A stretch of 64,000 nt of DNA, taken from NCBI GenBank assembly GCA_002150815.3, contig NDFF03000020.1, positions 62,001-126,000 of the forward strand, given 5' to 3'. Numbering within the stretch: the first letter of the stretch is position 1; the number at the start of each line of letters is the position of its first letter. This DNA comes from Grammothele lineata (Eukaryota; Basidiomycota; Agaricomycetes; Polyporales; Polyporaceae). This document shows positions 2,886-10,224 of this stretch, one piece after another. Both the position numbers and the translations under genes were made by a program. Below the pieces are notes generated by a model. The model was not told the DNA's origin. It saw nothing but the letters and a program-made list of their open reading frames with translations, and ran no database searches.

Positions 2886-3425
2886 CGTGCGGACGAGGGC
2901 GGGGCGGGGTCAAGCGGAGAGGACCACAGAAAGCGAAGCGGAGGCTAGAGAGACAGAGGTGGACAGCGACGGGTCGTCGCGAGGACGTCGAGGGTTGGCA
3001 GGCACGGGAGCAAAAAGAGAAGAAATCACTTCGCCGCGCGATATTTAGCAACGTCCTTACCCGAACCTGACGTGCGCGATCACGACTGCCAGAACGCCCG
3101 CGCCACTCCACCTCTACGGTCTATCGCAATACGTAAACGCGCTCGGGGTGAGAAGGTTGTGGTCGGGCGGATCGCAGCGGCCTTCGAAGGACGCGCTTCG
3201 TATGATGGGGATGTCGATGGGTCGGTACCGCACGCCGTACGGGGACCGTGGAGCTCGAAGCACGACTGGAAGGGATAGTATTGGTAGCGCGGGCGAGTAG
3301 ACTCGTATCCAGTCTCCACTTGGCACCTGCGATATATGTTGGGCGTGGGACAGGTCAGAGGAGCGAAGGGCGCGGTTTGAGCGGGTGGGATACTAGTATG
3401 GGTGGCAGTAACGGTGCCGTGGAGA
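2886..3425. other. Intergenic stretch left of the inverted repeat
   Basis: Contains the putative promoter of the minus-strand gene starting at 2885. A long minus-strand open frame at 3080-3694 crosses the inverted repeat and has no recognisable domain. Nothing else is seen. Confidence 0.45.
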
Positions 3426-3500
3426 CTGGGATAACTGCAAGGGGAGCGAGTACAGTAGAATTTTGAACTCCGCATATACCCGTTTTGGTAGCCCGCACGT
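3426..3500 (+). repeat. Left arm of imperfect inverted repeat around the DUF6589/RecQ pair
   Basis: The core at 3452-3473 reads ACAG-TAGA-A-TTTTGAACTCCGC. The reverse complement of 9741-9764 gives ACAG-AG-TAGA-T-TTTTGAACTCCGC. Exactly 21 bases inward from the CCGC, both arms carry GCACGTG. Outward of ACAG they carry CTGGGATAACTG (left) and CTGGAACAACTG (right). The arms are similar over roughly 75 bp with small gaps. No convincing target-site duplication could be fixed, so the outer boundary is uncertain. Confidence 0.7.
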
Positions 3501-3581
3501 GCGTTCCACGACGCGTCCCGAGTCGCGGTGAGCGCCTCATTATGGAGAACTCGACGCGTCCCGGACGCGTCTCTCTTCGCT

Positions 3582-6500
3582 ATGTCTATGCAGCCCCCGA
3601 GAAAGCGTCGCTCTGACGCAGAGAACAACGCGTTTTCTGTCATCGTTGATACCCCACCTCCTAAGCGCGTCCGCCGCACTCTCCAGCCTCTCACGCCAGA
3701 TGCCCTGCTTGCGGAACAGCAGCGTCTCGCCCAGGAACGCCGAAGGCAGGAAACAGCCGAAGAACCAGCCCATCGTGAGACAGAGAAGGCTCAAGCACGC
3801 GCGCAAGAGGAAGCCCGCCAGCAGCAGGTCAACGCGTCCCTCAAACGCGTTGTCAGCGAGGCAAAAGCATCTGGCTTGGGGACTCTTCCAGAGTTCCTCG
3901 CGTCTCTTTTCTCCACCACTGACCAGCAACTCTCTTCCAACGTCTCTCGGGCAATCGGAACTCACGGAACCACGCTACTGAACCTCATGCATCACCGGCA
4001 GCCCGAGGTCACCAGCAACTGGGCCTTTGCCCATGTTCAGCGGGAGATACAGACGGAGGTGGGGAAGCTGGCGGAGCAGCTCAAGCGGCCGTCTGGCCAG
4101 AGCCTGACCGACATTCTCTCGGAGTGGACTTTTGAAGGACTTTTGGAGAAAACCCAGGAGCTTGCGCCAACGCTCTGGAAGACACTATGCGCAGCTGGAT
4201 CAGGAGGGTCAGCGTCATCGGGGGATACGGCACAGCGAAGGGATCGGAACTTGGTATGTCACTTGCTCTGTACTGTATGGCGATGGTTGGCTACATGTTG
4301 GTTGCTCCGATAGGTTTTCGGCAGCGTGGTTGCAATGCTCGCATATGCTTCCAATGAGCGGGCCAACGAGCTACAAAGTGTTCTGTGTATTTATCTACTC
4401 GCATGTGGAGCAACACGATCACAGTTCGAGGTCCTCAACCACGCTGGACTTGCGTGCTCCTACCCCACCGCCATCCTTCATCTGAAGGAGCTCAGTGAAG
4501 AGAGATTAGCAATGATCCAAGATCTAGTCCGCCGTTTTCCGTGTATGATTGCATGGGACAACATCAACATTGCATTCCGTGTCAATGAGCAGCGCCACGA
4601 CTCGAAAGACCATTTCGATAACGGCACAACAGCGACAATCATTCGCCTCTTCGACGTTCAATATGGTGCCCTTCATCTGGAGCTCAAGCCCCCTCGAGAC
4701 ACCCGCTTGCCCGTTTTGGACTTCGGCCCCGAACATCTCCTGCCGTCAGTAGCTCAAGTGAGGCAGCTAGAAGAAGATCAGTTATGGCATCTCGAGAATA
4801 TCCTTCTCGATTTCATTCCTGCCCTTCGTCGGCGTCTTGGCGAGTCTTTTCCGCCTCCGCCAGCTGTCCTTCCAATCCCTCTGCACCGTACTGAGCAATA
4901 TCCACTTCCCGCAATGCACATTGACGAGTCAAGTCTCGACGGCACCATAGACGTGATGGACACCATTTTCCGCAAGACGCTGAACCTCTCCGATGAGGAC
5001 ATCCGTAAACACGGCCTCTTCATCTGTGCAGGGGATCAACTATCCATTTCGCTTCTTGACAAGGTAAGTCGACCATCAATATAATATATAGCTGTTCCGT
5101 ACAACTTAAATTCGGTTGCGCAGGCCTCTGCATCACGCCGTGATGACACGGACCTCATGGACAATCTCGGGAAGTACACGGTTGGCCAACTCGGCCTTTT
5201 TCATGTCAAAATGGCGGCAGACCGAATGGTTGCCAACGAGTTCTGGGGAGCTCCCAATTCTAAGTCGCCGTGGTCACTTTGGCGCATGAATGCTCTCCTC
5301 GGGCGGAAAGCTATCACCGCAGGGTGGAAGGCTAAAAAACTCCCGCCATTCCGCCCGACATGGGAGCTCATCACGCGCCTTGTCTTACCGGCCAACGTAC
5401 TCGACGGGTATCGGCTCTTCTGCCCGGGCTCTGACCTCGATGTGTGGGCTGCGAGTGTTCCGGACTACGCCAGCGTGAGGAGTGTTACCCTCCGTGTGCA
5501 TAACGAGTTATTCTCGTCTCGGCGAGTGTCCACACTGCGAAGATTGCCACCAACCCAGCGCGACGTTCCCCTAGAGAACATCATCCTGCACAACCGTGAT
5601 GGTCTCCTTCTCGTGCAGTTTGCTTTCGCAGTCAAACGTGGAGATATAGGGGCGGCAGTAAATGTACTGGCTATGTGGAAGGTTCTCTTCCGGGGGACAG
5701 GGTCGATGAACAAGTACGCAGATGCGCTTTTCCATGCTCTAGTCACACTCGAAAAGATGGATTCTACGCTCCGGTGAGTCCGCTTATACACTGTGCACAT
5801 TCAACTAATCTGACTCGATACAATATACAGGAAGGCATTTTTGATGAACTGGCTTGTCAATCTCACAGGCCGCCCAAATGCCTGGAAAGAAATCGACCTT
5901 CTTGAGGAGCATCAAAACTTTTGGGCGAAGGTGAGTGCTAGTGTTGCGAGACCACGCAGTGCGCACTTGCCTTATACTGCACACTCTTACATGCTCATTT
6001 ACAGATTATCTACAGTGCAAAGGGTTCAAACCGCTCTTGGAAGTGGCTAGCCATGATCACGCTGGTAATTTTCCTCCTCCGAGACGTCATCAGGAGTGTT
6101 CAGGCTGGATACAAGACACCGCACAATGGAAAGACACATACCAGCCCAGATATCCGCCAAGACATCATGACGATTATGAAATACCTACAGGAGCACACCA
6201 TTCAGTCCTACACTCCTCAGAGGCCTTACAACACTCACGCGACAGAGGCGCGAGATCTGATGGTCAAAGGTGCGGAGTATGGGAGCACTGCGCGCGCCTT
6301 TAAGAGTTTCTCTAGTAGTACAGGGCGTGCGCATTACAGACAAGCCGCTAGAGGTGAAGAGAGTGTAGATATAGAGTCTGAGGATGAAGACGAGCAGGAG
6401 GGCAGAGAAGCGAACTTGTCGCCTCACTCTGAGGCGGGTGAAGCGGACCAGGACTCGGAGGAGCCTGATATTGAGATGGACGATCTGTTCATGGACGACG

Positions 6501-6583
6501 AGGACTTGCCTATTGAGGGTAATGTAGAGGATCTCATACGTACAGTAGAGGGTCTTATTTCTGAGGTGCAATCTTGTATGTAA
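3582..6583 (+). CDS. DUF6589-type protein, candidate transposase-like enzyme
   Basis: Five exons in consistent phase: 3582-4253, 4314-5063, 5124-5773, 5831-5930 and 6005-6583, giving 916 aa. The first ATG in frame (MSMQPPRKRR) is used. Residues 1-110 are basic and predicted coiled coil (repeated R/E/Q/A), with KRVRR-type nuclear signals. The core from about 230 to 700 resembles the large agaricomycete DUF6589 family as I recall it. Motifs are CMIAWDNINI (Asp306), FICAGDQLSI (Asp465) and GLFHVKMA (His501). The C-terminal 100 residues are strongly acidic (ESEDEDEQEG, DDLFMDDEDL). It faces the RecQ-like gene tail to tail (stops 295 bp apart) inside the inverted repeat. A DDE/RNase-H-like role is inference; the family itself is of unknown function. 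Confidence 0.85.
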
Positions 6584-6878
6584 CTGTAGTTACCCACCAG
6601 GAAAGTAGCCACAGCGACCTGACCGAAGCTATGCCGCGGTGAGAAGGTGCGATGAGCGCCTATTGCAACGTCAACGTTTGTGCCATTGTACAAGATGCAA
6701 ACCTTGCTGGAGTTACACAAAACTTGGCATATATGCTCACAAACATCACAGAAAGCACTTCTGATACTTCGCTATGCTTAGTAATCTTCCCCAAAGATGT
6801 TATAGACAACTCTCCGAACCCAACTGTGCGCTCTCGGAGGTCGCCGAGATATAAGCGCCCAAATGCCCGCCTGCATAC

Positions 6879-9582
6879 TCAGGCTGCCCTCCCTCCTCTT
6901 CTGCTCCGCCCAGCACGACCTCTTGGACGACTGCTAGCTCGCCCCCTCTGCTCTGCTACTCCATCTCCTCTTCCTCGCCCCGATCCTCGTCCTCTACCGC
7001 TAGTTCCTCCCCCCCTACTAGTACTTCTTTGCCCCCGGCCTCGGCCTCTCCCTCGCGCCCTTCCCCTGGCCCTCCCTCCCTGTCCTTGTCCTTCATTCTC
7101 GTCCGCATGTGCATCGTCCTCTGATGCTTCTTCCTGGCTTCCATTGTGAGTACTTTCATCTGCCACGGGTGATCCTGACTCGGTATCTGACACAGATGAT
7201 CTAGAACCATTGTCAGCAGTGGTTGTGCTCGACTCCGAGTCCGAATCCTGCTCTTCGCCTAGCTGCTGTTGGACTCCAGTGGACGACCCTGCCGTGCTGG
7301 TGCCAGAGCCATAGAAGGTGCTAGGAGGAATAGGGCCCCCTCGGTGAGTAGCCTTTTTGAGGATCTCCGGACCCTCCTTCTGCATGAAGTCGTACTTCTT
7401 GTACGCTCGAGAAAGGACACCAAGGAGCTCCCTCCCGTATGATGTGAGCGCTGTCCGCGAACGATCCGTAAACGCCTGCGGCCATCGTGAGTGCTTAGCC
7501 AGGGTGTCTACTGTGTATATCCGAGTACCGCAAGTTGCAATCTGCTCGATATCGGAGTCCGGAAGTATTGCCTCGGCACTGATGAGGGTGCTTGTCCCAG
7601 GAAACATTGCATCGAGAAGACAGGTGTCTCGCCAAGTACGAACATCCAGGCGCACTCTGCATTCAAACCTAGGCGTAAGTTTCTTCTTCCGACCCCGCTG
7701 GAGTGAAGGGACGGCAGGAGAGACGACAATCTGAGGCAAAGGAAAGCGGGTGGGCTGACAGTTGTCGCAGCAGCGGGCATTGGGATGATGTTTGTAGGTA
7801 GAGTTCTCAGGATCGATAATGGACACTGGTCACTCAGTTAGCCCTGCCGTCAATTAAATCATCAGTGAAAACAATTGACGTACGCTTTTTATCATTTTGA
7901 AAGAACCGATCCCAAGGTTTCCGCCGGCACTCCGTGGTCTGTAGGAACATAGAGAGAGCACGCGCCTCTATGCTGTTGCATCCAGTGGTTGTCCGCTTCT
8001 TCTTCACAGTCCTTGCGGATGAGCTAGGTTCATCGGCATCCTCCTGCTCTCCTCCGCGCTCAACACGCACCCCTCCCTCCTGCACCCAAACGACCTCGCG
8101 GCCTTCGGCAACTGTAGCCCCACCGTCGAACCCGGCAAGATCAGGATCCTGTGAAGGGTCGTCTGTCGGCTCGTCGGTGGCAGTTACGGTGTGATCGCGT
8201 GCCTCCTGAGCTGCGAACGTGATGGCTAAGTCGACGATGTCCTGTGTTACAGCCTCCTTAAGATGCTTGGCTGGCACTATGACGATTGCTTCCCCTAATG
8301 TTTCCAGATCGCGGGCTGCACGTCCCACACGCTGTACGAGAGCACAGAACGAGGGAGGTATATCCCAGAGGATCACACGAGCAATATTGCGCATGTCACA
8401 TCCCTGCCAAGCACCAGAACCCCGTGAGCACGAAAGTGTATAACTGCCTTGAATATGTGGTCCAGCACTCACCATTCCAACCGCGTCTGTGCATACGAGG
8501 ATTCGTACTTCGCCCTTTGCCAACTTCTCTTCCAACTCGCGCTTTCGCTTTGTGCCGATTTTGGCATGGTAGTAGGCGACTGCCGTCTTTGGAATGCCAG
8601 ACTCGTCTAACCATTTGCGTAGCCGGTCGGTGACATCCTCACAGGTGAGGCGAGAGTTACAGTAGATGAGTGTTACCGGGATATCATCCGCGGCTTTTGC
8701 TGACTGTGGAATGAGAAAGCGTAGGTCCGCTTTCGACTCGTTGGAGTAACGCATTGCACGGACTGATAGAGCAACGTTGAGGCGTGCGTTAGACAGGCGG
8801 ATGGCGTCGTAATCTTGCGCAAGGCCGAGTTGGGCACGGACATCATCCAGGATGTGTGAAGGAAATGTGGCTGATGCAATGAGGAAGGGTACATTGGCAG
8901 GGATGCGACCTCGGAGGACTCCTAAGGCGGAGTACTCCGGACGAAAGTCACCGCCCCAGAGGCTGACGCAGTGTGCCTCGTCAATGCACACGACCCGTAG
9001 GTTTTCGTAGAATGTTGCCCGAGAAAGAACCAGGCGCCGGAACTCCGGGGACGTGCAGATCTCCGGTGACACGTACACCTGACGGAATCTGCCACTTGCA
9101 ACATCCTAAAATGTGTTTAACCTCGGAGTTGCTGTGGCCGAGATGGTATGGGCCTACCTCGAAAAGTCTATCTTTACCTCCGGGTGCATTCTGTATCGTT
9201 TCTTGACAAACGGCCACTGCTCTGAGGGACGAGCTTTGAACCTAAATTTCAGTTAGTATGCGGTGCGACCCAATGCAGAGTTCGAGAGACCGCAAGCATC
9301 AGCCTCCAATCCACAAACCTGATTGACCATGAGCGCCGATAGTGGGGAGATGACCAGGGCTATGTCGGTTTTGCTGTGAAGCAGCGGCAACGAAAAGCAC
9401 AGGGTCTTCCCACTGCCTGTGCCAACGTCGAGAACAACGTCACGGCCCGCCATAATCGAGGCGGCACACTTCAGCTGCCATTGGAAGGGCCGGATACTGA
9501 ACTTGTCGAGTGAGAGCTGGGCGAGTTTGTCCGCATCAAACCTCTCTTCGCGGATACGAGTGACCTTCGACAGACGAGACAT
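6879..9582 (-). CDS. RecQ-like DEAH-box DNA helicase with basic RG-rich tail
   Basis: Five exons: 9319-9582, 9158-9241, 8473-9105, 7884-8403 and 6879-7825, giving 815 aa. Superfamily 2 helicase motifs are intact: Walker A DVGTGSGKT (51-60), DEAH (158-161) in CIDEAHCVSLWGGDFRPEY, motif III IASATFP, motif IV TLIYCNSR and motif VI QRVGRAARD (from 351). The sequence WGGDFRPEY after the DEAH box is typical of RecQ enzymes. After the helicase core come a Cys cluster (ARCCDNC) and a charged Ser-rich linker. The tail of roughly 70 residues is made of RGRGRG-type repeats, likely to bind nucleic acid. RQC/HRDC domains are not obvious. Predicted to unwind DNA 3'-5' in the nucleus; pairing with the DUF6589 gene suggests a joint role in element mobility or maintenance. 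Confidence 0.9.
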
Positions 9583-9712
9583 GCGGGATGAAGGAGAAAA
9601 ACAGAATACATTTTAGGGGCTACGAGCTACATCGTGTGCGGCGAGGCGGAAGAGGCTACAATCGTCGAAGAGGGAGTGCCACAAGCGCTGGCCTAGCTGC
9701 TCGCGCGGGAGC
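9583..9712. promoter_or_regulatory. Probable RecQ-like gene promoter, inside the inverted repeat
   Basis: The 130 bp upstream of the helicase ATG reach the inner edge of the right inverted-repeat arm, whose CACGTG palindrome (an E-box-like site) mirrors the one upstream of the DUF6589 gene. The two genes may therefore share arm-borne promoter elements. No TATA box is clear. Confidence 0.3.
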
Positions 9713-9788
9713 CACGTGCCGCCTTCCTTGTAAGGGATAAGCGGAGTTCAAAAATCTACTCTGTTCGTCTCACTGACAGTTGTTCCAG
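9713..9788 (-). repeat. Right arm of imperfect inverted repeat around the DUF6589/RecQ pair
   Basis: Read on the minus strand, this arm gives CTGGAACAACTG, then ACAGAGTAGATTTTTGAACT followed by CCGC, and 21 bases further in GCACGTG. It matches the left arm at 3426-3500 block by block with the same inner spacing. The 13-base identity TTTTGAACTCCGC is the firmest part (9741-9753). Confidence 0.7.
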
Positions 9789-9827
9789 ACGCCTTGGTAT
9801 GTGATCATCCTCCACCAAGGCGTCTGG
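9785..9827. repeat. Perfect 14-bp inverted repeat (hairpin) at the outer edge of the right arm
   Basis: CCAGACGCCTTGGT at 9785-9798 is exactly complementary to ACCAAGGCGTCTGG at 9814-9827, with a 15-base loop. CTAG follows at 9836-9839. It abuts the right arm of the element. It could be a terminal structure of the element, a transcription terminator or chance; no equivalent is clear on the left. Confidence 0.6.
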
Positions 9828-9839
9828 TGACGAGACTAG

Positions 9840-10224
9840 CGGGCGAGTGGGAGGGCACAATCGTTGATAGTACATACATACACAGAGGGAACCCGCCCTC
9901 TGGCCATGAGACAGCCGGGCGCGACGTGATCGTGATGAGGAATTCGGAAGCTGCGGGACCGTGACGGGACTAGATGGGAGCGGGGCGCCTGTGCGTCTGT
10001 ACGTCCGTACGTCGTTTCGCAGCGCAGCGTTCACCTTAGTAGATCGTCAGTACGTAGACTGGAAAACAACAAGTAAGTTATGATAGCAGAGTCTGCGCAC
10101 GCGCACAGCATATAAACGTGTCAGACAAGGTGCGCGCGTCATAGTGGCCAGTCGAGGCGTACCTGATCGTCATAATCGCACACCGTTCGCCTCTTCGCCT
10201 TTCCGCCTTTTCGCTTTTTTGACT
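9840..10224. other. Intergenic stretch
   Basis: Lies between the element edge and the stop of the next minus-strand gene. The minus-strand frame over 9756-10034 has no family motif. Nothing else is seen. Confidence 0.45.

What the first reader, a model, noticed from the sequence alone, without database searches (positions are those of the whole stretch)
3426..9788. DUF6589 + RecQ-like helicase pair bounded by an inverted repeat: candidate undescribed DNA element
Two tail-to-tail genes fill the space between two arms that share TTTTGAACTCCGC in inverted orientation. Both arms have GCACGTG at the same inner offset and CTGG-x-A-x-AACTG outside. The arms sit just outside the two start codons and nothing else lies between them. 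A helicase plus a nuclear protein with conserved acidic residues inside terminal repeats is the layout of an autonomous transposon. To my knowledge this pairing is not an established fungal transposon class; I could not search for prior reports.
Basis: partly seen in the sequence, partly recalled or inferred. Interest (0 to 1): 0.82.

Follow-up and report, generated by a model that had tools for sequence, protein, structure and literature searches.

The report
AcademH-like fungal DNA transposon, DUF6589 transposase
This stretch of a mushroom-type fungal genome is a complete-looking jumping gene that carries its own probable cutting enzyme (from a protein family filed as of unknown function) and a DNA-unwinding helicase, and it most likely belongs to a rare but already described class of transposons.

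Summary
The arms (about 3426-3515, 9702-9788) are real but subterminal. The element is 3298-9838 (6541 bp): termini TAG...CTA, imperfect TIRs (12 of 15), perfect 9-bp target duplication GCGGGCGAG. A 153-bp derivative on another contig shares both ends (106/107, 43/44 bases), with its own 9-bp duplication and unrelated flanks. Of six DUF6589 loci found in the genome, five have a RecQ-like helicase neighbour; all five pairs lie between TAG/CTA termini with perfect 9-bp duplications, the sixth does not. Fifteen DUF6589/helicase pairs elsewhere share a contig, 14 in named Agaricomycetes. The predicted structure of a homologue resembles Hermes, RAG1, P element and Transib, so DUF6589 is probably a DDE transposase. 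Transposase, helicase and 9-bp duplications fit AcademH (Kojima 2020, not held; 9 or 10 bp per PMC10045372). Filed as a probable new AcademH member; sequence-level membership could not be tested. Useful part: a probable function for DUF6589, with no report found in the held library.

The parts
3289..3297 (.). left target site duplication GCGGGCGAG (9 bp)
   Evidence: exact direct repeat flanking the termini
3298..9838 (.). whole transposon, 6541 bp, termini TAG...CTA
   Evidence: TIR 12/15 plus perfect 9-bp TSD; deletion derivative on contig C215 ends at the same bases
3298..3312 (+). left terminal inverted repeat TAGACTCGTATCCAG
9824..9838 (-). right terminal inverted repeat TAGTCTCGTCACCAG (read on - strand)
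9839..9847 (.). right target site duplication GCGGGCGAG (9 bp)
   Evidence: local alignment 47 vs shuffle maximum 29; function inferred
9785..9827 (.). right-end palindrome, 14-bp perfect arms 9785-9798 / 9814-9827, overlapping the right TIR
   Evidence: I9
3582..6583 (+). DUF6589 protein, 916 aa, inferred DDE transposase; introns 4254-4313, 5064-5123, 5774-5830, 5931-6004; no internal stop; candidate catalytic residues D306, D465, E717
   Evidence: splice model, PF20231 E 1.3e-112, conservation, predicted fold of homologue P0001
6879..9582 (-). RecQ-like superfamily-2 helicase, 815-aa model; exons 9582-9319, 9241-9158, 9105-8473, 8403-7884, 7825-6879; no internal stop. The last intron is a choice among four models tried (504, 516, 606, 815 aa)
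   Evidence: splice models; the Ganoderma homologue aligns over 84% of the 815-aa model, which favours it; DEAD and Helicase_C; nearest solved relatives RecQ/WRN/RECQ5

Best explanation
Window 3298-9838 is an apparently intact autonomous DNA transposon. Shown: TAG...CTA termini with imperfect TIRs, a perfect 9-bp target duplication, a deletion derivative inserted elsewhere with its own duplication, four further DUF6589+helicase elements with the same terminal signature in the genome, and a predicted RNase-H-like DDE fold for a homologue of its DUF6589 protein. Inferred: the DUF6589 protein binds the terminal and subterminal repeats, cuts the ends through a D306/D465/E717 triad and joins them to target cuts staggered by 9 bp; the RecQ-like helicase, encoded convergently, helps by unwinding ends or repairing gaps after excision or insertion. 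By composition and duplication length it most probably belongs to the AcademH lineage of Academ transposons (my estimate 0.75 for that part alone; the confidence below is for the transposon reading).
Against: No published AcademH sequence was available, so membership rests on composition and TSD length; Kojima 2020 is not held and was not read. No empty allele was seen. Of the short matches to the ends fetched from other contigs (C215, C78, C11, C5, C51, C23), only C215 gave both termini with a duplication of at most one mismatch. No Foldseek match has E below 0.001, and the best have low TM-scores (0.20-0.24 by query) and rmsd of 11-18. The modelled protein is a 65%-identical Ganoderma homologue, not the window's own. 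The residue-level match of the triad to Hermes was not obtained. One of five elements (C34:497144-504862) has its genes divergent, not convergent. The Mantel correlation would also arise from common vertical descent. The other four elements were not judged intact: most of their DUF6589 frames contain stops, which ignores introns.
Confidence: 0.9

Rival explanations
1. It is a DUF6589/RecQ transposon of a lineage unrelated by sequence to Academ: a separate superfamily that converged on helicase plus 9-bp duplications.
For: No paper in the held library mentions DUF6589, and PF20231 occurs only in one unrelated optics paper; nearest solved folds are hAT, RAG1 and P element; Pfam names no known transposase family for it.
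Against: Helicase, 9-bp TSD and low-copy occurrence in Basidiomycota are what is reported for AcademH.
Confidence: 0.2
2. It is a member of another known superfamily with a helicase or 9-bp duplications: KolobokH (RecQ helicase, fungi) or Mutator-like.
For: KolobokH encodes a RecQ helicase and is found only in fungi, and a red-algal Kolobok has a RecQ helicase on the complementary strand (PMC9587614, passages); 9-bp duplications are usual for Mutator-like elements (recalled).
Against: Kolobok duplicates TTAA, 4 bp; here 9 bp of variable sequence. No MULE domain was reported by Pfam at E up to 0.1.
Confidence: 0.04
3. Two ordinary host genes that happen to lie tail to tail, with chance inverted repeats.
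For: Both gene models are open, and the DNA search found the full-length element once in this genome (counts there are lower bounds).
Against: The deletion derivative, the five perfect TSDs and the recurrent pairing in other species.
Confidence: 0.01

Closest known systems
AcademH lineage of Academ DNA transposons (Kojima 2020, Mob DNA 11:15; not read, seen only as cited in PMC10045372 and PMC10799480)
   Same: DNA transposon with a helicase; 9-bp target duplications, within the reported 9 or 10 bp; low copy number; Basidiomycota.
   Different: Cannot be said at sequence level: no AcademH consensus or transposase sequence was available. A link to Pfam DUF6589 was not found in the held literature.
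KolobokH (PMC9587614, passages)
   Same: RecQ helicase plus DDE transposase, fungi.
   Different: TTAA 4-bp duplications; [quoted passage not shown]
hAT (Hermes), P element, RAG1/Transib
   Same: Closest solved folds to the DUF6589 homologue: RNase H core with a long helical insertion.
   Different: No helicase gene and usual duplications of 8, 8 and 5 bp (both recalled, from no call).

Membership tests
AcademH | 9- or 10-bp target site duplications | tested here: met
   9 bp exact at five of five elements and at the C215 derivative; reported length from PMC10045372
AcademH | encodes a helicase | tested here: met
   RecQ-like helicase 9582-6879; neighbour at five of six DUF6589 loci
AcademH | DDD/E transposase (Academ is listed among the DDD/E superfamilies in PMC9587614) | tested here: met
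   by prediction only: fold of homologue P0001 and conserved acidic columns; catalysis not tested
AcademH | transposase homologous to Academ transposases | not testable with these tools
   no Academ reference sequence; Kojima 2020 not held
KolobokH | TTAA-specific 4-bp target duplication | tested here: not met
   9-bp duplications of five different sequences
Mutator-like | MULE transposase domain detectable with Pfam | tested here: not met
   only DUF6589 above its cut-off, no MULE domain listed at E up to 0.1
hAT | 8-bp target duplication (recalled; 7, 6 and 5 bp also occur per PMC12730594) | tested here: not met
   9 bp at five of five
hAT | hAT-type transposase fold | tested here: inconclusive

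The most novel reading that the evidence does not exclude
DUF6589 plus RecQ-like helicase elements form their own superfamily of DDE transposons in Agaricomycetes, with TAG...CTA termini, 9-bp duplications and a regular helicase partner, separate in descent from Academ.
Probability: 0.2. Interest if true: 0.65.

Novelty: new member of a known kind. Interest (0 to 1): 0.45.

Why it matters
It gives a probable function, DDE transposase, to DUF6589, a Pfam family of unknown function that is frequent in mushroom genomes. It supplies a complete-looking element with defined ends plus a natural 153-bp minimal copy, so the question of why a DDE transposon carries a RecQ-type helicase becomes directly testable.

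Tried and rejected
The first TIR/TSD scans missed C34:497144-504862, C41 and C52 because they tolerated few TIR mismatches; C34:497144-504862 was first read by eye; the first C41 reading (inverted repeat 232438/238782) showed no duplication and was replaced by 232442-238838. C239 (DUF6589, no helicase found) gave no TAG/CTA plus duplication in the fetched flanks. Of the six contigs with short matches to the element's ends, five (C78, C11, C5, C51, C23) gave no termini-plus-duplication; by eye the C78 copy has 7 of 9 matching flank bases, which I do not count. A DUF6589 profile against PDB sequences found nothing significant; the viral structure library gave no match with E below 0.001. Families absent from the fold lists are not excluded by that. 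Splice models: one search failed for the DUF6589 gene (a pattern was not found, giving a nonsense read), the helicase models had a wrong donor or acceptor; all dropped. The 372-residue helicase query came from an early exon reading with a misread second exon. Literature searches. Papers: passages by term search only, for PMC10799480, PMC12730594, PMC10045372, PMC9587614, PMC8290104 and PMC12210899 (reference-list lines only) and PMC12411881.

Full report
Observation. The two genes and the inverted arms exist as described. The 13-mer TTTTGAACTCCGC occurs once on each strand of the window (3461; 9741), the GCACGTG boxes lie at the same offset of 34, and the arms align with score 47 against at most 29 in 1000 shuffles. 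The DUF6589 gene (3582-6583, +) splices to 916 aa and the helicase gene (9582-6879, -) to 815 aa in the longest of four models tried; neither has an internal stop. The four helicase models share about the first 500 residues; the Ganoderma homologue aligns over 84% of the 815-aa model, which favours it. Pfam gives DUF6589 (E 1.3e-112), and DEAD plus Helicase_C for the second gene; its nearest solved relatives by sequence are bacterial RecQ, WRN and RECQ5.

True ends. A search of the window's own genome (41.8 Mb, 252 contigs; counts are lower bounds) with 2900-10100 found one full copy, and on contigs C215 and C78 short pieces matching only the two ends, side by side. A scan for a direct repeat of 8-10 bp flanking an inverted repeat gave a single hit around the window genes: 3298-9838, 12 of 15 TIR bases, TSD GCGGGCGAG. 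Controls: 0 hits in 19 other windows and 3 hits in total over 500 shuffles.

Mobility. C215:192383-192535 is 153 bp long, has the same two ends (106/107 and 43/44 bases), its own perfect duplication ATCTGGATA, and flanks no more alike than chance (16/60 and 16/60). Of the six contigs with fetched short matches, only C215 met the scan for both termini plus duplication. A pattern search for TAGNCTCGTNNCCAG with up to one mismatch gave 240 places against 173 for the reversed control pattern, so most places may be chance. Among the 100 places listed there are 8 short inward-facing pairs, 85-256 bp apart (C10, C23, C28 twice, C36, C127, C215, C231), where about 0.1 would be expected within 300 bp (arithmetic); they look like miniature elements.

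Family in the same genome. Six DUF6589 loci were found (18 matches, grouped by me) with a RecQ-like helicase next to five. With the rule TAG at the left end, CTA at the right end and a 9-bp repeat outside, all five pairs give exactly one hit, each with an exact repeat: window 3298-9838 (GCGGGCGAG), C34:83201-90191 (TCGCGCATC), C34:497144-504862 (CGCCCTCCG), C41:232442-238838 (CTTCGGCTC), C52:47052-53423 (ATCCCCGCA); the sixth locus, C239, gives none. Controls: 0 of 39 sliding windows; 2 of 60 cross-locus combinations, C34a with C239 in either order, probably one coincidence counted twice. Per pair tested the controls predict about 0.12 hits over the six loci scanned. Four of the five pairs are convergent; C34:497144-504862 is divergent.

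Pairing in other fungi. Protein searches listed 59 plus 75 further DUF6589 proteins, 134 in all, and 66 helicases at E up to 1e-60. One of the 15 is an unnamed 8917-base contig. In two cases the locus tags are consecutive (BYT27DRAFT_7225346/7225347; D9611_012205/012206). Gene positions were not seen. The remaining 119 had no such partner in the capped helicase list; whether they have a more distant one was not tested. The distances of the two proteins over 13 pairs, the window's included, correlate (Mantel r 0.83, p 0.0001), as expected for a co-inherited unit, though common vertical descent would give this too.

Mechanism. Shown: ends, duplications, derivative copy, pairing; predicted: fold. 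Inferred: DUF6589 binds terminal and subterminal repeats, cuts, and joins to a 9-bp staggered target; the helicase remodels or unwinds ends, or serves repair after excision. The palindrome at 9785-9827 in the right end may be a binding site.

Comparison. The AcademH lineage is reported to encode a helicase and to make 9- or 10-bp duplications (PMC10045372, passage) and to be low-copy in Basidiomycota, Ascomycota and Mucoromycota (PMC10799480, passage). The original paper was not held. KolobokH also has a RecQ helicase, but Kolobok duplicates TTAA (PMC9587614, passages). So the element is best filed as a probable new AcademH member, with sequence-level homology to Academ untested. No paper in the held library mentions DUF6589, and PF20231 occurs only in an unrelated optics paper; that is a statement about these two searches only. 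The host was not identified; that it is an agaricomycete is inferred from the nearest protein matches.

Noticed in passing
G000:C239:79827-82605: A DUF6589 gene without a detected helicase neighbour and without TAG/CTA termini plus duplication in the fetched flanks; could be degenerate, partial or domesticated. It lies about 7 kb from a contig end.
   Followed up: partly
G000:C34:497144-504862: Element whose two genes are divergent, not convergent; its left-end 15-mer TAGGCTCGTCCCCAG makes up 13 of the 35 exact TIR-pattern places listed, so it may belong to a larger repeat family.
   Followed up: partly
window 6708-6793: The stretch between the two genes has a 76% match on contig C5:55229-55314; not explained.
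   Followed up: no
window 9785-9827: Perfect 14-bp palindrome with a 15-base loop inside the right end, overlapping the right TIR; no counterpart at the left end was listed.
   Followed up: no
G000:C23:212836-213002, C127:5252-5417, C231:865177-865339: Three short inward-facing TIR pairs of 163-167 bp, perhaps one miniature-element family; sequences could not be read.
   Followed up: no
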